64,000 nucleotides of DNA from Piezodorus guildinii (Eukaryota; Arthropoda; Insecta; Hemiptera; Pentatomidae), in assembly GCA_023052935.1 (NCBI GenBank), contig CM041297.1, positions 3,648,280 to 3,712,279 of the forward strand. The letters are read 5' to 3'. A model generated the notes under the pieces. It ran no database searches. It saw nothing but the letters and a program-made list of their open reading frames with translations, and was not told the origin of the DNA. Made by a program: the position numbers and the translations under genes. Below are positions 1,872 to 52,129 of this stretch, in pieces (positions within the stretch are counted from its first letter, which is position 1; each line of letters begins with the position of its first letter).

Positions 1872-2423
1872 TTATTTTATCTTACTTATACATGAAATAT
1901 ATAGTATGGGAAAGTATCGGGATAGTAAAAGTTTTCGACATTGAATTTTCAACCAAAATACACATTCTAAAGTCCTCTTTATTCAAATTAGTCCCTCAAA
2001 ATGGTGAGTATGTGATTGGAGATATTTTAGAAGCGTATATACTTGGGATGTTACAGCAAAATTTTTATCAAAATCGGAAAAAAATAAGATTCACTTTATA
2101 GCATGCATTTTGAACGTTTTTACGATTTTCTAAAAAAGTACTCTAATGATTTTAATTAAACTCAATACACCTATGTAAAATGTAATGGGCTTTAATATCA
2201 TGTAGGTTTCATTCTGATTTAAATAGTCTGACAGGGCTTAAATACCGATATTAAGTACCTTTAATTTTGTAGATTCTATAAAAAATAGCCATATCATCTT
2301 CTTATCATTAATAAAAACAGGTAAATTTATAAATTGGATGAATTTGATGACCAGCTAAAGGATATAAGAGCAAATCTATTTTTTTATTTCATTTTTGGCT
2401 AATAGTAGTAATATAGACGTATA
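1872..2423 (-). mobile_element. HINE-A copy, left part (split by fold-back element)
   Basis: Starts with a diverged form of the 3' end ('cttacttatacatgaaatatatagtatgggaaagtatcggg') and runs through the HINE-A body ('taatgggctttaatatcatg', 'ctgacagggcttaaat') to 'atatagacgtata'. There the fold-back element interrupts it. The missing continuation ('taatataccgttgg') resumes at 11351. Confidence 0.75.
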
Positions 2424-2872
2424 TAGCATTTCCAAGTCAAATGTAACCTTTTCCAAGTCAAATGTCACCTTTTCCAAGTCAAATGTCACCCTTTTCCTTT
2501 CAAGTCACCTTTCCAAGTCAAATGTCACCTTTTCCATTTCAAATGTCACCTTTTCCATTTCAAATGTCACCTTTTCCATTTCAAATGTCACCTTTTCCAT
2601 TTCAAATGTCACCTTTTCCAAGTTCAAATGTCACCCTTTTCCATTTCAAATGTCACCTTTTCCATTTCAAATGTCACCTTTTCCATTTCAAATGTCACCT
2701 TTTCCATTTCAAATGTCACCTTTTCCATTTCAAATGTCACCTTTTCCATTTCAAATGTCACCTTTTCCAAGTCAAATGTCACCCTTTCCATTTCAAATGT
2801 CACCTTTTCCATTTCAAATGTCACCTTTTCCATTTCAAATGTTACATTTTCCAAGTCAAATGTCACCTTTTT
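2424..2872 (+). repeat. Left terminal 21-bp tandem array of FB-1
   Basis: About 21 units of a 21-bp repeat with core 'caaatgtcaccttttcc'. Two unit types alternate irregularly: 'ccatttcaaatgtcac' and 'ccaagtcaaatgtcac'. A few indels near 2490-2515 and 2620-2640 shift the phase. Because 21 is a multiple of 3, several frames stay open and give artefactual peptides such as repeated MSPFPFQ. Confidence 0.95.
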
Positions 2873-3135
2873 CTTCACTTCTAGCCTTAAATATTCAGTT
2901 TTATTTATTTATTTATTGAAAAATAATTAGTTTAATTAAAATTATGACTTTTTTAATAATTTTGGCATATCCTATCGCTATTTTTTTCTGTTTTTTAGAT
3001 ATTTGATAACAAGTTCTGTTTTTTACGAACTAATATTTAAAAAAATTAATTATTGTCTATTTAGTTTTAAGATAGTTGTTGATTTTGAATTTTTAGAGGG
3101 AAGGGATACTTTTTGGGAATAATTAATGTGTTTTC
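2873..3135 (+). repeat. Inner inverted segment of FB-1, left copy
   Basis: Non-tandem sequence ('cttctagccttaaatattc' onward) whose reverse complement is at 10078-10334 with only scattered single-base differences, e.g. one A/C near 2900 and one T/C near 2980. The high similarity of the two copies suggests recent formation or gene conversion between arms. Confidence 0.9.
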
Positions 3136-4830
3136 GGGTATTATAATAACGTTTTTCGAGATGTATTTTTTATCGCTCGCAGGCATATTAACTCGCATTT
3201 CCTTTTAATGTTTTTTATTGATATAGGGATTAATTATTGTGCTTTCGGGTGGTTATGATGACGTTTTTCGAGCTCTATCTTTTATCGCTCATGCGTATTT
3301 CAACTCGCATTTACTTTTAATGTTTTTTATATACAAATTGGTTATTAATTGTATTTGCGGGTCTTGTAATTACGTTTTTTGAGCTGTATTTTTTATCGCT
3401 CATGGGTTTTTCAACTCGCATTTACTTTTTATGTTTTTTTATTGATATAGGGATTAATTATTGTGCTTTCGGGTGGTTATGAATTCGTTTTTCGAGCTGT
3501 ATTTTTTATCGCTCATGGGTATTTCAACTCGCATTTACTTTTTATCTTTTTTATTGATTTAGAGATTAATTATTGTGCTTTCGGGTGGTTATGTATACGT
3601 TTTTTTGAGCTGTATTTTTTATCGATCATGGGTTTTTCAACTCGCATTACTTTTTATGTTTTTTTATTGATATAGGGATTAATTAATGTGTTTTCGGGTG
3701 TTATAATTACGTTTTTTGAGATGTATATTTTATCGCTCACTTGCACATTAACTCGCATTTATTTTTAATGATTTTTATTGATACAGGGATTAATTATTGT
3801 GCTTTCGGGTGGTTATGAATACGTTTTTTGAGCTTTATTTTTTATCGATCATGGGTTTTTCAACTCGCATTACTTTTTATGTTTTTTTATTGATATAGGG
3901 ATTAATTAATGTGTTTTCGGGTGTTATAATTACGTTTTTTGAGATGTATATTTTATCGCTCACTTGCACATTAACTCGCATTTATTTTTAATGATTTTTA
4001 TTGATACAGGGATTAATTATTGTGCTTTCGGGTGGTTATGAATACGTTTTTTGAGCTGTATTTTTTATCGATCATGGGTTTTTCAACTCGCATTACTTTT
4101 TATGTTTTTTTATTGATATAGGGATTAATTAATGTGTTTTCGGGTGTTATAATTACGTTTTTTGAGATGTATATTTTATCGCTCACTTGCACATTAACTC
4201 GCATTTATTTTTAATGATTTTTATTGATACAGGGATTAATTAATGTGCTTTCGGGTGGTTATGATTACGTTTTTCGAGCTGTATTTTTTATCGCTCATGG
4301 GTATTTCTACTCGTATTTACTTTTTATGTTTTTTATTGATATAGGGATTAATTATTGTGCTTTCGGGTGGTTATGATTAAGTTTTTGATGGATATTGGGA
4401 TTGATTATTTTGTTTTTAGTTCTCATTATAACGTTGTTGGAATATACATCATTTAGCTTTTTTTTATTTATTTTTTTTTATTTAATATTAATATTATTAT
4501 TTTTTTATAAAAGGATTAGTTATAGTTCCTTTTTTAGCGTCCTGAGTAAGTTTTTTCAACTAAATATTTTATAATGGACCCACTTTTTTACTTGTTCTTA
4601 CAATTATCTGATAATTTAATTGAGGAATTGTTTATTCTATTTTCGGATGTTCTTATAACATTATTTGAACCTTATTTGTTATCGCTTTTACTCATTTTAA
4701 TTTACTGTTCCTATTTCATAAATATTTGATAGAGGGATCGTTTATAGTTTTTTGGGGAATACTAATAGAGTTTATGACATTTTTTTATAGCTAGTGCACA
4801 TTTTAACTTAAATGAAAAGTGATCAAGATA
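3136..4830 (+). repeat. 112-bp satellite monomers, forward half
   Basis: Monomers contain 'gtgctttcgggtggttatg', 'gagctgtattttttatcgc' and 'caactcgcatttacttttta'. Successive 'gtgctttcgg' motifs at 3463 and 3575 are 112 bp apart. Variants occur with 'gtgttttcgggtgttataa' (e.g. 3690, 3915, 4135), forming local higher-order alternation. Monomers become strongly diverged after 4380, towards the inversion point. Confidence 0.9.
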
Positions 4831-7800
4831 AATGCGCAATCGCGATGTAACACCCAGTTAAAAAAAGTAATCAGAACGTGCAAAAACACAACAAATAATT
4901 TTTACTTCAAATTATAACATAATATCTACGGTATGTAGAAATTTCCAAGCGCATAAAAGATTAATGTTCAAAACACGTAATCAGAATCCCCTAAAACAAA
5001 AACAAAGAAAGACCACTCTATCAAAATATAAAATAATATTAGCTCTAAGTTGAAACAAGCGCGAGCTATAGAATAAGCAGTCCAAAAAAAGTTTTTTCAT
5101 AACCACCCAAAAACACAAGTATAGATCCCCTATAACAATAAAAAGATTAGAAGTAAATGCAAGTTGGAATGCGAACAAGCGACAATAAATACAGCTCAAA
5201 AAACGTAATTACAACACCCGGAAAGACAATTCCTAACCTATATATCAATAAAAAACATTAAAAGTAAATGCGAGTTGAAATACGCATGAGCGATAAAAGA
5301 TAGAGCTCAAAAAACGTAATCATAACCACCCGAAAGCACAACAATTAATGCCTATATCAATAAAAAACATTAAAAGTAAATGCGAGTTGAAATACCCATG
5401 AGCGATAAAAAATACAGCTCGAAAAACGTAATCATAACCACCCGAAAGCACATTAAGTAATCCCTATATCAATAAAAAACATTAAAAGTAAATGCGAGTT
5501 GAAATACGCATGAGCGATAAAAGATAGAGCTCAAAAAACGTAATCATAACCACCCGAAAGCACATTAATTAATCCCTATATCAATAAAAATCATTAAAAA
5601 TAAATGCGAGTTAATATGCCAGTGAGCGATAAAAAATACAGCTCGAAAAACGTAATCATAACCACCCGAAAGCACATTAAGTAATCCCTATATCAATAAA
5701 AAACATTAAAAGTAAATGCGAGTTGAAATACGCATGAGCGATAAAAGATAGAGCTCAAAAAACGTAATCATAACCACCCGAAAGCACATTAATTAATCCC
5801 TATATCAATAAAAATCATTAAAAATAAATGCGAGTTAATATGCCAGTGAGCGATAAAAAATACAGCTCGAAAAACGAATTCATAACCACCCGAAAGCACA
5901 ATAATTAATCCCTATATCAATTAAAAAACATAAAAAGTAAATGCGAGTTGAAAAACCATGAGCGATAAAAAGATACAGCTCGAAAAACGTAATTACAAGA
6001 CCCGCAAATACAATTAATAACCCATTTGTATATAAAAAACATTAAAAGTAAATGCGAGTTGAAATACGCATGAGCGAATAAAGATAGAGCTCGAAAAACG
6101 TATTCATAACCACCCGAAAGCACAATAATTAATCTCTAAATCAATAAAAAACATAAAAAGTAAATGCGAGTTGAAAAACCCATGAGCGATAAAAAATACA
6201 GCTCGAAAAACGTAATTACAAGACCCGCAAATACAATTAATAACTCATTTGTATATAAAAAACATTAAAAGTAAATGCGAGTTGAAATACGCATGAGCGT
6301 AAAAGATAGAGCTCGAAAAACGTATTCATAACACCCGAAAGCACAATAATTAATCTCTAAATCAATAAAAAACATAAAAAGTAAATGCGAGTTGAAAAAC
6401 CCATGAGCGATAAAAAATACAGCTCGAAAAAACGTAATTACAAGACCCGCAAATACAATTAATAACCCATTTGTATATAAAAAACATTAAAAGTAAATGC
6501 GAGTTGAAAAACCCATGAGCGATAAAAAATACAGCTCGAAAAAACGTAATTACAAGACCCGCAAATACAATTAATAACTCATTTGTATATAAAAAACATT
6601 AAAAGTAAATACGAGTTGAAATACGCATGAGCGATAAAAGATAGAGCTCGAAAAACGTATTCATAACCACCCGAAAGCACAATAATTAATCTCTAAATCA
6701 ATAAAAAAATAAAAAGTAAATGCGAGTTGAAAAACCCATGAGCGATAAAAAGATACAGCTCGAAAAACGTAATTACAAGACCCGCAAATACAATTAATAA
6801 CCCATTGTATATAAAAAACATTAAAAGTAAATGCGAGTTGAAATACGCATGAGCGATAAAAGATAGAGCTCGAAAAACGTATTCATAACCACCCGAAAGC
6901 ACAATAATTAATCCTATATCAATAAAAAACATAAAAAGTAAATGCGAGTTGAAATACCCATGAGCGATAAAAAGATACAGCTCGAAAAACGTAATTACAA
7001 GACCCGCAAATACAATTAATAACCCATTTGTTTGTATATAAAAAACATTAAAAGTAAATGCGAGTTGAAATACGCATGAGCGAAAAAATAAGCTCGAAAA
7101 ACGTATTCATAACACCGAAAGAAATAATAATCCCTATATCAATAAAAACATAAAAGTAAATGCGAGTTGAAATACATGAGCGATAAAAATACAGCTCGAA
7201 AAACGTAATTAAACCGAAAACAATTAATCCATAATAAAAAACTTAAAGTAAATGCGAGTTGAAATACATGAGCGATAAAATAGCTCGAAAAACGTTCATA
7301 CACCGAAAGACATAATTAATCTATATCAATAAAAACATAAAAAGTAAATGCGATGAAAACCGGCGAAAAAAATACAGTCGAAAACTAATCAAACCCAAAA
7401 AATATAACCCATTATATAAAAACATTAAAAGTAAATGCGAGTTGAAATACGCATGAGCGATAAAAAATACAGCTCGAAAAACGTATTCATAACCACCCGA
7501 AAGCACAATTAATTAATCCTATAATCAATAAAAAAACATTAAAAGTAAATGCGAGTTGAAATAACCCATGAGCGATAAAAAATACAGCTCAAAAACGTAA
7601 TTACAAGACCCGCAAATACAATTAATAACCATTTGTATATAAAAAACATTAAAAGTAAATGCGAGTTGAAAACGCATGAGCGATAAAAAATACAGCTCGA
7701 AAAACGTAATTCAAACCCCCGAAAGTCACAATTAATTAATCCTATATCAATAAAAAACATTAAAAGTAAATGCGAGTTGAAATACCATGAGCGATAAAAA

Positions 7801-10077
7801 TACAGCTCGAAAAAACGTAATTTAAACAAACCCGAAAGACAATTTAATAATCCCTATATCAATAAAAAACATTAAAAGTAAATGCGAGTTGAAATACGCA
7901 TGAGCGATAAAAAGATACAGCTCGAAAAACGTAATCATAACAACCCGAAATACAATAATTAATCCCTATATCAATAAAAACATTAAAAAGTAAATGCGAG
8001 TTGAAATACCCATGAGCGATAAAAAGATACAGCTCGAAAAAACGAAATTCATAACCACCCGAAAGCACAATAATTAATCCCTATTCAATAAAAAACATTA
8101 AAAAGTAAATGCGAGTTGAAAATACCCATGAGCGATAAAAAATACAGCTCGAAAAACGTAATTACAAGACCCGCAAAACAATTAATTAACCCTTTGTATA
8201 TAAAAAACATTAAAAGTAAATGCGAGTTGAAATACGCATGAGCGATAAAAGATAGAGCTCGAAAAACGTATTCATAACCACCCGAAAGCACAATAATTAA
8301 TCTCTAAATCAATAAAAAACATAAAAAGTAAATGCGAGTTGAAAAACCCCATGAGCGATAAAAGATAGAGCTCGAAAAACGTATTCATAACCACCCGAAA
8401 GCACAATAATTAATCTCTAAATCAATAAAAAACATAAAAAGTAAATGCGAGTTGAAAAACCCATGAGCGATAAAAGATAGAGCTCGAAAAACGTATTCAT
8501 AACCACCCGAAAGCACAATAATTAATCTCTAAATCAATAAAAAACATAAAAAGTAAATGCGAGTTGAAAAACCCATGAGCGATAAAAGATAGAGCTCGAA
8601 AAACGTATTCATAACCACCCGAAAGCACAATAATTAATCTCTAAATCAATAAAAAACATAAAAAGTAAATGCGAGTTGAAAAACCCATGAGCGATAAAAG
8701 ATAGAGCTCGAAAAACGTATTCATAACCACCCGAAAGCACAATAATTAATCTCTAAATCAATAAAAAACATAAAAAGTAAATGCGAGTTGAAAAACCCAT
8801 GAGCGATAAAAGATAGAGCTCGAAAAACGTATTCATAACCACCCGAAAGCACAATAATTAATCTCTAAATCAATAAAAAACATAAAAAGTAAATGCGAGT
8901 TGAAAAACCCATGAGCGATAAAAGATAGAGCTCGAAAAACGTATTCATAACCACCCGAAAGCACAATAATTAATCTCTAAATCAATAAAAAACATAAAAA
9001 GTAAATGCGAGTTGAAAAACCCATGAGCGATAAAAAATACAGCTCAAAAAACGTAATTACAAGACCCGCAAATACAATTAATAACCCATTTGTATATAAA
9101 AAACATTAAAAGTAAATGCGAGTTGAAATACGCATGAGCGATAAAAGATAGAGCTCGAAAAACGTATTCATAACCACCCGAAAGCACAATAATTAATCTC
9201 TAAATCAATAAAAAACATAAAAAGTAAATGCGAGTTGAAAAACCCATGAGCGATAAAAAATACAGCTCAAAAAACGTAATTACAAGACCCGCAAATACAA
9301 TTAATAACCCATTTGTATATAAAAAACATTAAAAGTAAATGCGAGTTGAAATACGCATGAGCGATAAAAGATAGAGCTCGAAAAACGTATTCATAACCAC
9401 CCGAAAGCACAATAATTAATCTCTAAATCAATAAAAAACATAAAAAGTAAATGCGAGTTGAAAAACCCATGAGCGATAAAAGATAGAGCTCGAAAAACGT
9501 ATTCATAACCACCCGAAAGCACAATAATTAATCTCTAAATCAATAAAAAACATAAAAAGTAAATGCGAGTTGAAAAACCCATGAGCGATAAAAAATACAG
9601 CTCAAAAAACGTAATTACAAGACCCGCAAATACAATTAATAACCCATTTGTATATAAAAAACATTAAAAGTAAATGCGAGTTGAAATACCCATGAGCGAT
9701 AAAAAATACAGCTCAAAATACGTAATTACAAGACCCGCAAATACAATTAATAACCTATATATCTATAAAAAACATTAAAAGTAAATGAGAGTTGAAATAC
9801 CCATGAGCGATAAAAGATAGAGCTCAAAAAACTTAATCATAACCACCCGAAAGCACAATAATTAATCCCTATATCAATAAAAAACATAAAAAGTTAATTT
9901 TAGTTAAAATAAACGAGGGCGATAAAAAATACCGCTCGAAAAACGTAATCATAACCACCCGAAAGCACAATAATTAATCCCTATATCAATAAAAAACATT
10001 AAAAGGAAATGCGAGTTAATATGCCTGCGAGCGATAAAAAATACATCTCGAAAAACGTCATTATAATACCCGAAAAC
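4831..10077 (-). repeat. 112-bp satellite monomers, inverted half
   Basis: Same monomer as 3136-4830 in reverse orientation ('aagtaaatgcgagttgaaa', 'catgagcgataaaa', 'cataaccacccgaaagcac'). 'atgagcg' at 8351, 8463 and 8575 confirms the 112-bp period. Two variants, A ('gatagagctcgaaaaacgta') and B ('acaagacccgcaaatacaat'), alternate as dimers in 5917-7060 and 9020-9740. About 7 consecutive near-identical A monomers lie at about 8240-9020. The 7075-7860 part is full of small deletions. Confidence 0.9.
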
Positions 10078-10334
10078 ACATTAATTATTCCCAAAAAGTA
10101 TCCCTTCCCTCTAAAAATTCAAAATCAACAACTATCTTAAAACTAAATAGACAATAATTAATTTTTTTAAATATTAGTTCGTAAAAAACAGAACTTGTTA
10201 TCAAATATCTAAAAAACAGAAAAAAATGGCGATAGGATATGCCAAAATTATTAAAAAAGTCATAATTTTAATTAAACTAATTATTTTTCAATAAATAAAT
10301 AAATAAAACGGAATATTTAAGGCTAGAAGTGAAG
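10078..10334 (-). repeat. Inner inverted segment of FB-1, right copy
   Basis: Reverse complement of 2873-3135, ending 'ggctagaagtgaagaaaaag' where the right 21-bp array begins. It shows the two FB-1 arms are the same sequence in opposite orientation. Confidence 0.9.
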
Positions 10335-11350
10335 AAAAAGGTGACATTTGACTTGGAAAATGTAACATTTGAAATGGAAAAGGTGACATTTGAAATGGAA
10401 AGGGTGACATTTGACTTGGAAAAGGTGACATTTGAAATGGAAAAGGTGACATTTGAAATGGAAAAGGTGACATTTGAAATGGAAAAGGTGACATTTGAAA
10501 TGGAAAAGGTGACATTTGAAATGGAAAAGGTGACATTTGAAATGGAAAAGGTGACATTTGAAATGGAAAAGGTGACATTTGAAATGGAAAAGGTGACATT
10601 TGAAATGGAAAAGGTGACATTTGAAATGGAAAAGGTGACATTTGAAATGGAAAAGGTGACATTTGAAATGGAAAAGGTGACATTTGACTTGGAAAAGGTG
10701 ACATTTGACTTGGAAAAGGTGACATTTGAAATGGAAAAGGTGACATTTGAAATGGAAAAGGTGACATTTGAAATGGAAAAGGTGACATTTGAAATGGAAA
10801 AGGTGACATTTGAAATGGAAAAGGTGACATTTGAAATGGAAAAGGTGACATTTGAAATGGAAAAGGTGACATTTGAAATGGAAAAGGTGACATTTGAAAT
10901 GGAAAAGGTGACATTTGAAATGGAAAAGGTGACATTTGACTTGGAAAAGGTGACATTTGACTTGGAAAAGGTGACATTTGAAATGGAAAAGGTGACATTT
11001 GAAATGGAAAAGGTGACATTTGAAATGGAAAAGGTGACATTTGAAATGGAAAAGGTGACATTTGAAATGGAAAAGGTGACATTTGAAATGGAAAAGGTGA
11101 CATTTGAAATGGAAAAGGTGACATTTGAAATGGAAAAGGTGACATTTGAAATGGAAAAGGTGACATTTGAAATGGAAAAGGTGACATTTGAAATGGAAAA
11201 GGTGACATTTGAAATGGAAAAGGTGACATTTGACTTGGAAAAGGTGACATTTGAAATGGAAAGGTGACATTTGAAATGGAAAAGGTGACATTTGACTTGG
11301 AAAAGGTTACAATTGACTTGGAAAAGGTTACAATTGACTTGGAAATGCTA
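10335..11350 (-). repeat. Right terminal 21-bp tandem array of FB-1
   Basis: About 48 units of the 21-bp repeat ('ggtgacatttgaaatggaaaa') in inverse orientation to the left array, more than twice as many units. Two adjacent 'gacttgg' variant units occur at 10686/10707 and again at 10938/10959, exactly 252 bp (12 units) apart. This indicates a 12-unit higher-order duplication. The outermost units change to 'aaaggttacaattgacttgg' before the terminal 'ggaaatgcta'. The 312-322 residue open frames on both strands are repeat artefacts. Confidence 0.95.
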
Positions 11351-11450
11351 TAATATACCGTTGGTAAGAGAAAAATATAAAAACAAATATTATCCGATGA
11401 ACAAAGGTGTAAAAGATAATATAAATTGACAGAGAATAAAAATATAAATA
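11351..11450 (-). mobile_element. HINE-A copy, right part (continues 1872-2423)
   Basis: Resumes at 'taatataccgttggtaagag', which in intact HINE-A copies follows 'agacgta' directly. This places FB-1 inside this HINE-A. Similarity fades by about 11450. Confidence 0.7.
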
Positions 11451-42989: not shown

Positions 42990-43541
42990 AATTGAAACAA
43001 AATCTGAAAACGCTATTTTCACTTGGTCATCATTTTCAAAAAGTTTTCCTTTGACGAAGTTGTCTAAATTCCTGAACAGGTGGTAATCTGTTGGAGACAA
43101 GTCGGGAGAATATTTTAGGTGCGGAAGAACTTCGTAGCCCAGTTCTTTCAATTTTCGCACGGTATGTTTTGAAATATGGGGTCTTGCTGCCGCTCAGTGA
43201 GATCATGAGGTACCCATGTATCGAGCTTTTTTACTTTCCCAATACACTTTAAATGTCTGGAAACGGTAGATGCACTTGCATTTAGTTGTGCTGAGAGCCC
43301 TTTAACTGTTTGGTAGGGGTTTCCTTCTACTGTATGTTTGAGGACATCGTTGTCTATTACGGACGGAGGTCTTCCTCGGGGCAAGTTTTCCAAGTCGGTA
43401 TCCCCAGCTGAAAACTTAGCAAACCAACGACGAATGGTCCGTTCATTAACACTCCCTTCCCCAAACGCCTTGCGAATATTTCTAGCGGCCTCAGCTGCTG
43501 AATGGCCGAGTTTAAACTCGTAAAAAATATTACTCGCGTGT
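42990..43541 (-). pseudogene. Mariner transposase, internally deleted
   Basis: Minus strand: KLGHSAAEAARNIRKAFGEG and NERTIRRWFAKFSAGD (first helix-turn-helix), LENLPRGRPPSV (linker), QLNASASTVSRHLKCIGKV (second helix-turn-helix). The next block jumps to MRKLKELGYEVLPHLKYSPD and LSPTDYHLFRNLDNFVKGK, the segment around the third catalytic aspartate (mariner DD34D). The first two catalytic aspartates lie in the deleted part, and a stop follows the initial METRE. Transposase would bind the terminal repeats and cut and paste the element into TA; this copy cannot. Confidence 0.9.
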
Positions 43542-43739
43542 TTCCATGTTCATATTTGGAGATATACTAAAAGGTGGGTAATTGATTGGGAAGCTAATGT
43601 CTATAATACAAAGGTAGAGGATAAGTAACTGGTTTCTTTAAATATGCAAACATTCGGAAGAAAACAACAGAGACCTGCAAAATCCTTTATGTATTTCAGA
43701 AACTATAAAAACGGACATTTCATGTGAAACAACCCAATA
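42990..43739 (-). mobile_element. Mariner element 1, 3' end lost
   Basis: The 5' terminal inverted repeat is present at 43703-43739 ('ggacatttcatgtgaaacaa' then 'cccaata'). The other end is lost at the junction with HINE-A near 42990, so no TSD can be read. Same family as 61985-62754. Confidence 0.85.
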
Positions 43740-44513
43740 GTTTTCAACGGAAATACACGTTTTAGGGTCACCTGAGTCCAAATGACCAAGTACCGCAAAA
43801 AGGCCTGTGTGTGCGGTAAGTCTAGTAGGTAAACGAGAAGTATTATAGAACTGAAATTTCATATTTATGACAAAATTCACCTAAAACGGTTGACCGAAAA
43901 TGCTGATACAAAATTATACCATTAAATTCGCACCTTTTTACGATTTTCTCAAAAACGGCACTAACGATTTCAATTAAACTTACTACATTGATGTAAAATT
44001 TAATGGGTTTTAATATGATATAATTTTAATTCTGAATGAAATGGTATAACAGGGCTTGAATACCGATATTTTAAATTTTCTTCATCTCAAAAACATTTAA
44101 TTCCGTAAATTCTATAAAAATAACTATATTATCTAGTTAGCATTGATAATCAACAGCTAAATATGCAAGTTGAGCGAATTTGATAAACAACTGAAGGAGG
44201 AAACTCAAAAAATATTTTTTAATGCAATTTTTTGTTTTTGAACATAAGAGCAGTAATATAGACGTATAATATACCGTTGGTAAGAGAAAGATTTAAAAAG
44301 AAAAAACATTATCTTATACGCAAGCCGGTAAAAGTTAATACAGAGTGATAAAAAGCGGCTTTTATGGTTTCAATCATTTTTATTTCTAACTGTATTTTAA
44401 AATTCCTTAATGATGGAGTTTTTGTTGACCGTTGAGAAATTAGATGAGGAAGATGGTTGGGGGTGCGGTCATAAATTAGAAACACACATTTAAAACAAGT
44501 GCTATTTTAATTA

Positions 44514-48447: not shown

Positions 48448-48950
48448 ACGCTACTAACTATTTTACAACCCAATACCTCCTTCAGCAGTTGCGTAGCACC
48501 GCTAAAGACCGAACAAATAGTTATCAAAGCCTAAACTTGGAGTTTGAAACTCTAAAGCTCAAGTCCTCGAGAGAGTTTTGACTATTTATAAAGAGACTAT
48601 TTGACCCGAAGCTGGCAAATGGAAGCGCATGCATTAACAAACACAAGCGAACCAACCTATATCGTCCTCCCGAGCAGTTTGTTCTATTGTTCTCGAAACT
48701 GTTTGAGTCGAGTGTTTAGGATTCCATTAATTATTATCTAACTTTGAAGCAACTATCGAGGGGTCTTTACACTTAGGCAGAAACTGTTCGTTACTACCAT
48801 CAGCAAGCAATGGGAAGTATCCGAACTATGAAAATCCTTTAGTTTAGAACTAGCTGTACCTTTGCACGCGACTATTTCATTTTTTAATTGCTGCGAATTA
48901 AGAAAGTTTTTTTATAATAACTGTGTTACGAGAGGTTATACAATATATAG
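48448..48950. other. No gene recognised
   Basis: Balanced base composition to about 48840. No similarity noticed on either strand. Confidence 0.5.
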
Positions 48951-49110
48951 TTTTTTCAGTCAAATTCATAATTTTTTCAGTCAAATTCATAAGTTTACCA
49001 GTCAAATTCATAATTTTTTTCAGTCAAATTCATAATATTTTCAATCAAATTCATAATTTTTTTAATCAAATTAATATTTTTTTCAGTCAATTTCATAATT
49101 TCTTGAACCC
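48951..49110 (+). repeat. Minisatellite, about 20-bp unit
   Basis: About eight degenerate units of 'cagtcaaattcataattttt'. Open frames through it (VKFIIFSVKFI) are artefacts. Confidence 0.85.
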
Positions 49111-51503: not shown

Positions 51504-52129
51504 TATTGGGTCGTCCGAAAAGTTGGTAGAGGTTTTTCAAATAAAATTTACCTTCTGTTTTTTCTACTAAAAATGATTCACGAGGCTAATGTTTATTTAT
51601 ATGCCTTTAATTCTCATGGAATGAACTATGTTTACACACTGAATTCGTCTTTATTAAGGATCATAGTTTATTTCAAACCAACATGAGTGACGATTCAGTT
51701 CATTTTCGGCATAATATACTGTTCTTTTTAAAAAAAGGGAAAAACGTAGCCCAAACTGCAAGAAAGATCCGTTCCGTGTATGGCAGCGATTCAATTGCTG
51801 ATAGCACGATTCAGAAGTGGTTTAAGTTTTACCCACCGTACTTTTCTGACATTGCTCCTTCGGATTTCCATCATTTCCGTTTCCTCGGTAATTTTCGACA
51901 AGGGAAATCCTACTGTTCAGAAGATGATGACGTCAGAACGGACCTTTTATTGTTCTTTAGGAGGAAGGACAGTGATTTTTGAAAAAAGGGATAATGGACC
52001 TTCCAAACCGTTGGGAAAGGGTAATCGCTAACGGTGGTAACTATTTTGTAGATTAAATAAATAAATTTTAAGCTGTTCAATTTTAAATGTTGCCCAATTT
52101 TTTCTACAAACTTTCCCGACAACCCAATA
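51504..52129 (+). mobile_element. Mariner element of a second family, inside Helitron
   Basis: TA + 'ttgggtcgtccgaaaagttgg' at the left, and 'aactttcccgacaacccaa' + TA at the right, give imperfect inverted repeats of about 30 bp and TA duplications at 51504 and 52128. 626 bp, internally deleted. Confidence 0.9.
51683..52056 (+). pseudogene. Mariner transposase, deleted and frameshifted
   Basis: HFRHNILFFLKKGKNVAQTA and RKIRSVYGSDSIADSTIQKW form the first DNA-binding domain. The sequence then jumps to PPYFSDIAPSDFHHFRFLGN, the block with the third catalytic aspartate. A frameshift near 51990 is followed by IMDLPNRWERVIANGGNYFV and a natural stop. The central catalytic region is missing. Mos1-like N-terminus by motif. 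Confidence 0.88.

What the first reader, a model, noticed from the sequence alone, without database searches (positions are those of the whole stretch)
2424..11350. 8.9-kb fold-back element composed almost only of satellite arrays
Perfectly matched ends (TAGCATTTCC), inverted 21-bp arrays at both termini, near-identical inner inverted segments and an inverted 112-bp satellite field. It sits inside a HINE-A whose halves rejoin exactly with a TA duplication. This makes it a single inserted unit, not a pericentromeric array. It resembles Drosophila FB/Galileo in plan but carries two unrelated satellites. It may be an undescribed way in which satellite DNA is dispersed by transposition.
Basis: partly seen in the sequence, partly recalled or inferred. 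Interest (0 to 1): 0.88.

Follow-up and report, generated by a model that had tools for sequence, protein, structure and literature searches.

The report
Fold-back transposon family carrying satellite DNA
This is one copy of a large family of mobile DNA elements, probably moved by a borrowed enzyme, whose inside is almost nothing but satellite DNA, so that jumping of the element scatters satellite DNA through the chromosomes.

Summary
Window 2424-11350 is an 8,927-bp fold-back element (TAGCATTTCC...GGAAATGCTA) flanked by a TA duplication, inside a HINE-like repeat; 11 of 14 paralogues aligned in the window run unbroken through the insertion point.

It is not unique. The host assembly (1.2 Gb) holds 2,141 + 2,170 exact copies of the 17-bp end TATAGCATTTCCAAGTC, control 0. 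All 18 copies read at both ends lie between two TAs. Twelve of these 18 are 2.2-3.7 kb; this one is expanded. Of the first 100 listed places of a 112-bp satellite word, 85 lie inside exact end pairs and 11 beside an unpaired end. The same 17-bp end also flanks a second, unrelated 109-bp satellite.

Best reading: a non-autonomous TA-target (Tc1/mariner-like, inferred) fold-back family whose arms tend to be homogenised with each other and whose satellite cassette expands in place. No transposase copy was found. Precedents exist (Tetris, miDNA4, Cg_HINE), so satellite dispersal by transposition is not itself new; the combination (TA-target fold-back, end multiplied into arrays, apparently exchangeable cargo, about 2,000 copies) is a new variant.

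The parts
2422..2423 (.). left TA of the target-site duplication
2424..2440 (+). left terminal inverted repeat, 17 bp exact (TAGCATTTCCAAGTCAA)
   Evidence: TA + its first 15 bases found 4,311 times in the genome
2429..2871 (+). left 21-bp array, about 21 units, first unit begins inside the TIR
2872..3114 (+). left spacer, near-identical to the right one
   Evidence: 350 of 353 aligned bases over 2872-3225; found in all 20 regions read
3115..4386 (-). left 112-bp satellite array, 11 monomers
4387..5096. middle: decayed inverted satellite monomers around the axis; matched in 17 of the 20 regions (in one of them over 43 bp only)
5097..10092 (+). right 112-bp satellite array, 45 monomers, expanded
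7080..7440 (+). stretch of the array with an excess of deletions, probable consensus error of the assembly
10093..10335 (-). right spacer
10336..11345 (-). right 21-bp array, about 48 units
11334..11350 (-). right terminal inverted repeat
11351..11352 (.). right TA of the target-site duplication
1898..2423 (+). left part of the host repeat (HINE-like) that was split; left limit approximate
11351..11429 (+). right part of the same host repeat copy; similarity to paralogues ends near 11429

Best explanation
The element is an expanded member of a non-autonomous, cut-and-paste fold-back DNA transposon family that inserts at TA. SHOWN: the same end at thousands of places, TA on both sides of every copy read at both ends, an empty target in paralogues, variable array lengths, inverted satellite arrays between the ends, arms of one copy usually more alike than arms of different copies, and a second unrelated satellite between the same 17-bp ends. 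INFERRED: a TA-specific transposase (most likely of the Tc1/mariner superfamily) encoded elsewhere binds the terminal 21-bp unit, which has been multiplied into an array of possible binding sites, and moves the whole palindrome, satellite included; the two arms exchange sequence by gene conversion or hairpin repair; after insertion the satellite cassette grows in place by unequal exchange or slippage. The result is dispersal of satellite seeds, some of which expand where they land.
For: Ends: 2,141 forward and 2,170 reverse exact matches to TATAGCATTTCCAAGTC, 0 and 0 for the pattern read backwards. TA on both sides in 18 of 18 copies read at both ends. Length: 36 end pairs among the first 100 ends on C1, 756 bp to 23 kb, median 3.46 kb; 28 ends unpaired (the 23-kb pair is probably not one element). 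Empty site. Satellite tied to elements: of the first 100 places of a 112-bp word (3,210 + 3,016 genome-wide, control 0) 85 lie inside exact end pairs, 10 follow one unpaired left end (1 to 8 kb from it), 1 precedes an unpaired right end, 4 have no exact end but the same inverted order; in all 15 pairs with the word on both strands every minus copy lies left of every plus copy (3 further pairs hold one word only). Growth in place: the nearest monomer lies in the same copy for 130 of 158 monomers of the three expanded copies (window 45 of 53, L058 33 of 43, L062 52 of 62; 8, 5 and 11 expected from copy size alone) and for 63 of 183 in the 17 others. Arm homogenisation: the left spacer's closest relative is the right spacer of its own copy in 11 of 15 copies, mean identity 0.971 within against 0.928 between copies. 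Second cargo.
Against: No copy with a transposase was found, but only 20 of 36 end-pair centres on C1 were read: 17 the known sequence, 2 the second satellite, 1 a reverse transcriptase fragment. The coding inserts in two long copies are LINE-type genes (L057, L064). So the transposase class rests on TA alone. The left arm is closer to another copy in 4 of 15 copies (L049, L050, L055, L056). Growth in place is not confined to the three expanded copies: L046 (8 of 11), L057 (10 of 15) and L048 (9 of 15) also have mostly self-nearest monomers, and the window's mean monomer identity within the copy (0.849) is no higher than that of several short copies (0.779 to 0.874) and little above that between copies (0.835). 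The 20 regions were chosen among the best 40 scored matches to this copy's own end and are biased towards its type. L051 and L052 have the same end flank (as L022 and L023) and are probably one locus twice.
Confidence: 0.92

Rival explanations
1. A short TA-inserted MITE landed in the HINE, and everything between its ends (inversion and satellites) arose in place afterwards; only the empty short form is mobile.
For: Short copies exist (904, 982 and 1,444 bp), and expanded copies have mostly self-derived monomers.
Against: The spacer (80-96% identical to this copy's) is in all 20 regions read, with the 112-bp unit, in the same order, on eight contigs besides this one, so they moved with the ends; the three short copies still hold 3 to 5 monomers each and look like internal deletions. 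The rival is true only for the extra length of this copy.
Confidence: 0.05
2. A member of the Drosophila FB/Galileo/Tetris group (Mutator or P superfamily) with an eroded target duplication.
For: Same plan: long TIRs with tandem repeats, satellite-like inner arrays, modular variants; Tetris and Galileo are the nearest in layout (PMC4079207).
Against: TA in 18 of 18 copies; an 8- to 10-bp duplication with at most one mismatch fits only L042 and L060, both in runs of TA. Galileo has 7 bp (recalled), Tetris 8-10 bp (PMC4079207).
Confidence: 0.04
3. An assembly artefact: a palindromic chimaeric read or collapsed satellite placed in a HINE.
For: The deletion-rich stretch 7,080-7,440 suggests that the array consensus is imperfect.
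Against: The arms differ in length and sequence, the two flanks are the two halves of one repeat copy with a TA duplication, and the same architecture is found across the assembly.
Confidence: 0.01
4. Sub-question: the second satellite (109 bp) belongs to a separate transposon family that shares with this one only the last 15 bases, so there is no exchange of cargo under one set of ends.
For: Only 17 bp of the end (2 of them target) and the centres of two such copies were read; 9 of 20 clusters of the second satellite have no exact end within 3 kb; its centres do not match the 112-bp unit or the spacer.
Against: 11 of 20 clusters have the exact 17-bp end in the right orientation (shifted control mean 0.22, largest 3), and 12 of 15 end-to-nearest-word distances are 354-676 bp, near the 425-553 bp from left end to first monomer in the 112-bp copies.
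Confidence: 0.35

Closest known systems
Tetris of Drosophila virilis (PMC4079207; abstract, first part of Results and first part of Discussion read)
   Same: [quoted passage not shown] here TRF also reports a 223-bp dimer of the 112-bp unit), arrays that grow to satellite size, no coding sequence, modular and rearranged copies.
   Different: Target duplication 8-10 bp against TA here; the outer domain is not described as an array of the terminal unit; three complete copies there, an estimated two thousand here; there 39 of 69 contigs hold the repeat alone, here 96 of 100 listed places lie inside or beside exact ends.
miDNA4, a Tc1/mariner MITE of Xenopus carrying a satellite (Scalvenzi and Pollet 2014; known here only through passages in PMC12628747 and PMC9659126)
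   Same: Non-autonomous element of the TA-target superfamily with an internal satellite array of variable copy number.
   Different: Described as a MITE with an internal array; no fold-back with inverted arrays and no terminal-unit array is mentioned in the passages seen.
Cg_HINE of Crassostrea gigas (PMC7492417; abstract and one section read)
   Same: Non-autonomous elements that disperse satellite-like arrays; one group has related flanks but divergent repeats (figure legend), that is, exchange of cargo.
   Different: Helentrons (rolling circle) with short subterminal inverted repeats and a 3' palindrome; no target duplication (recalled); central array, not a fold-back.
FB and Galileo of Drosophila (recalled; Galileo passages in PMC4079207)
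   Same: Fold-back plan, tandem repeats in the TIRs that may be transposase-binding sites.
   Different: Target duplication 9 bp (FB) and 7 bp (Galileo), from memory; here TA.

Membership tests
Fold-back (FB-like) element, structural class | Long inverted repeats that include tandem repeats and take up most of the element | tested here: met
   inverted order in all 15 end pairs with the satellite word on both strands
Fold-back (FB-like) element, structural class | Mobile: same ends at many places with target duplication and empty site | tested here: met
   (empty site shown for the window copy only)
Drosophila FB / Galileo / Tetris lineages | Target duplication of 7-10 bp | tested here: not met
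   TA in 18 of 18; 8-10 bp with at most one mismatch in 2 of 18, both TA runs
Tc1/mariner superfamily | Insertion at TA with TA duplication | tested here: met
   18 of 18; 31 of 31 end instances printed are preceded by TA
Tc1/mariner superfamily | DDE/D transposase of this superfamily encoded by a relative with the same ends | tested here: inconclusive
   none among the 20 of 36 end-pair centres read; mariner fragments in the window (43151-43549, 51611-51979) were not tested for these ends
HINE / Helentron | Subterminal inverted repeats with 3' palindrome (PMC7492417) and no target duplication (recalled) | tested here: not met
   the element has inverted repeats at its very ends and a TA duplication; the HINE is only its landing site
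Satellite-carrying transposon (Tetris, miDNA4, Cg_HINE kind) | Tandem array of variable copy number carried between conserved element ends | tested here: met

The most novel reading that the evidence does not exclude
One set of TA-specific transposon ends, themselves multiplied into arrays, acts as a carrier that takes up unrelated satellites (at least a 112-bp and a 109-bp one) as exchangeable inverted cassettes, scatters them as seeds through the genome, and lets some seeds grow in place (to 9-16 kb), while the two arms keep each other alike by conversion: a transposon-driven cycle of birth, dispersal and growth of satellite DNA.
Probability: 0.55. Interest if true: 0.75.

Novelty: new variant of a known kind. 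Interest (0 to 1): 0.6.

Why it matters
How satellite DNA gets from one chromosome to another is an old question. Here most monomers of an abundant satellite, as far as listed, can be tied to the ends of one transposon family with roughly two thousand insertion sites, many lengths, an empty site and apparently two cargoes, so dispersal by transposition, later growth in place and homogenisation between arms could be separated and timed copy by copy.

Tried and rejected
Pericentromeric satellite: rejected, 96 of the first 100 listed monomer places lie inside or beside exact ends (C1 only). Assembly palindrome: rejected (see rivals). FB/Galileo/Tetris lineage by target duplication: rejected. TATA as a 4-bp duplication: fits 7 of 18 copies only. 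The 21-bp unit as a relative of the 112-bp unit: no similarity beyond shuffles in 4 of 4 comparisons. A 21-bp array at 48947-49101 as a relic of the same family: weak (7 of 2,000 periodic shuffles reach its score), left open. LINE inserts in L057 and L064 as the missing transposase: rejected (Pfam RVT_1). Relatives in viral, phage, plasmid and prokaryote collections: no match, or matches no longer than the search word. Taxon: one search with an RT fragment gave Periplaneta americana proteins at 53-65% among the 120 listed of 5,601, and unnamed proteins at 90% and 78%, so an arthropod is likely; the species is not known to me.

Full report
WHAT IS THERE. Window 2424-11350 reads TA|TAGCATTTCC...GGAAATGCTA|TA. 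From each end inwards lie a 21-bp array (2429-2871, about 21 units; 10336-11345, about 48 units), a spacer of about 240 bp, and an array of a 112-bp unit (3115-4386, minus strand, 11 monomers; 5097-10092, plus strand, 45). The two spacers with the first monomer match at 350 of 353 aligned bases; the whole left arm aligns to part of the right one over 1,966 columns at 88.9%. The middle 4387-5096 is a decayed inverted repeat, its right half clearly of the same monomers, its left half less clearly. All 8 open frames of 110 aa or more that overlap the element are translated repeats. Two of them were scanned: one matched no Pfam family; the other reached PF02751 at 27.2 bits (cut-off 27.0) by a 10-residue match with no stretch passing on its own, a repeat artefact.

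HOW IT GOT THERE. A HINE-like repeat is present many times in the window. Of seven units printed, five show both ends ACTTTCACTTAC... and ...GTAAGTGAAAGT + CGTGTGTTGCCCGCACCAGATTTTT, inverse complements over 12 bp, like the 11-12 bp subTIRs of Cg_HINE (PMC7492417, one section). Joined without the element, the flanks continue through the junction like paralogues; 11 of 14 aligned paralogues read GTA|TRATATACCG there, and those at 43,914 and 37,084 match the window's CGTA|TAATATACCG exactly. The empty site is thus CGTATAATATACC and the element came with a TA duplication. The right half of the host repeat is short (about 79 bp) before its similarity ends.

IT IS A FAMILY. The host assembly (1,203,173,040 bases, 434 contigs; window = C6:3648280-3712279) gave 82 matches to the first 137 bp, 40 of 546 first-look candidates being scored. 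Of the 30 loci returned (one is this copy), 28 hold an exact TAGCATTTCC, and 31 of 31 such ends are preceded by TA. The exact 17-mer TATAGCATTTCCAAGTC occurs 2,141 + 2,170 times, control 0 + 0, or roughly 2,150 pairs; mutated ends are missed, and copies with repeated arms are counted more than once. Twenty regions were read: 15 hold both ends, 5 (L051, L052, L058, L061, L062) do not within the stretch. With the window, L042 and L045 that makes 18 copies with both ends, all 18 with TA on both sides; longer duplications fit only in TA-rich flanks. Lengths are 0.9-3.7 kb, except the window (8.9 kb) and L057 and L064 (5.9 and 7.3 kb, which hold LINE-type genes). L062 (over 9.6 kb, 19 + 47 monomers, four spacers in a row on the left) and L058 (30 + 15) are other expanded copies. 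On C1 the first 100 exact ends form 36 pairs of 0.8 to 23 kb, median 3.46 kb, with 28 ends unpaired.

SATELLITE AND ELEMENT. A 16-base word of the 112-bp unit occurs 3,210 + 3,016 times, control 0. That is 1.44 per exact end; in the 17 copies without the window it is 54 words to 31 ends, 1.74, so I see no sign of a large stock of this satellite outside the elements. Of the first 100 places on C1, 85 lie inside exact end pairs; 10 follow one unpaired left end (1 to 8 kb from it), 1 precedes an unpaired right end, and 4 have no exact end but run minus, minus, plus, plus. Of 25 pairs in that range 18 hold the word; in all 15 that hold it on both strands it is inverted, 3 hold one word only.

SECOND CARGO. 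Of the 36 end pairs on the first 32.6 Mb of C1, 20 were sampled in order along the contig, leaving out the 23-kb and the 16-kb pair: 17 are this family, one codes for a reverse transcriptase (L071, RVT_1 at 22.6 bits, below the cut-off of 29.6; by eye Penelope-like, not tested), and two (L069, L074) hold an unrelated satellite of 109 bp on both sides of a middle of their own, 88.7% alike over 415 bp. Neither resembles the 112-bp unit or the spacer beyond shuffles; of 12 comparisons one (L069 against the middle, plus strand) beat all 200 shuffles, by one point. A 21-base word of it occurs 3,594 + 3,573 times, control 0. Its first 100 places form 20 clusters; in the 15 with both strands all plus copies lie left of all minus copies. 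11 of 20 have the exact 17-bp end in the right orientation within 3 kb or inside (shifted control mean 0.22, largest 3), 9 do not. One is the 16-kb pair C1:15977058-15993087.

HOW IT WORKS. TA targets and a TA duplication point to a Tc1/mariner-type transposase (inference; recalled knowledge of the superfamilies, and some other groups may use TA). The first 21-bp unit is part of the end itself, and in the three copies printed whole (L039, L042, L045) units near the end have GTAAC while units next to the spacer have GTCACC, so the array is a multiplied end and may be a set of binding sites, as argued for Galileo and Tetris (PMC4079207, Discussion). The left spacer is closest to the right spacer of its own copy in 11 of 15 copies (0.971 within, 0.928 between), which fits conversion between arms. 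Expanded copies are made mostly of their own monomers (130 of 158), the other 17 less so (63 of 183), which fits growth after insertion; both exceed what copy size alone gives, some short copies are also mostly self-nearest, and the window's mean monomer identity within the copy (0.849) is unremarkable. In the window copy five successive monomers with the same change counts (R31-R35) and a dimer repeated three times (L05-L10) show such steps.

AGAINST KNOWN SYSTEMS. Tetris is the nearest in plan, miDNA4 in presumed enzyme, Cg_HINE in exchange of cargo. The papers listed by my searches (titles and starts of abstracts seen; passages or sections read in four papers) show me no TA-target fold-back with inverted satellite arrays; most subscription literature is not in that library, so this is weak evidence of absence. 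I file it as a new variant of a known kind.

LIMITS. The sample of 20 regions came from the best-scoring matches to this copy; the C1 end list is not chosen by similarity beyond 17 bp but covers only 32.6 Mb. The transposase is unknown. The species is unknown to me. Array lengths in the assembly may be wrong, above all at 7,080-7,440.

Noticed in passing
window 48947-49101: An isolated 21-bp tandem array (consensus ATAATTTTTTCAGTCAAATTC) whose unit resembles the AAGTCAAATG form of the element's 21-bp unit; 7 of 2,000 periodic shuffles score as well. Possibly a relic.
   Followed up: partly
window 7080-7440: Four successive satellite monomers with many deletions and few insertions, probably a badly polished stretch of the assembly.
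   Followed up: partly
L062 (C3:147533900-147543850) and C1:21134931-21141118: Places with four left ends or spacers in a row before the inner arrays, a modular rearrangement of the fold-back.
   Followed up: partly
L071 (C1:3978038-3978638): A reverse transcriptase fragment, Penelope-like by eye, in the centre of a 4-kb pair of the same ends; nested insert or something else was not resolved.
   Followed up: partly
L022/L051 (C45) and L023/L052 (C38): Two small contigs with the same 30-bp end flank, probably the same locus twice.
   Followed up: no
window 12.6-14.4 kb, 40, 43, 47, 52-55, 60-62 kb and others: Many 0.9-kb HINE-like repeats, two of them head to tail at 12.6-14.4 kb.
   Followed up: partly
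window 43151-43549 and 51611-51979: Fragments with a Mos1-type HTH_48 domain, that is, mariner relics.
   Followed up: no
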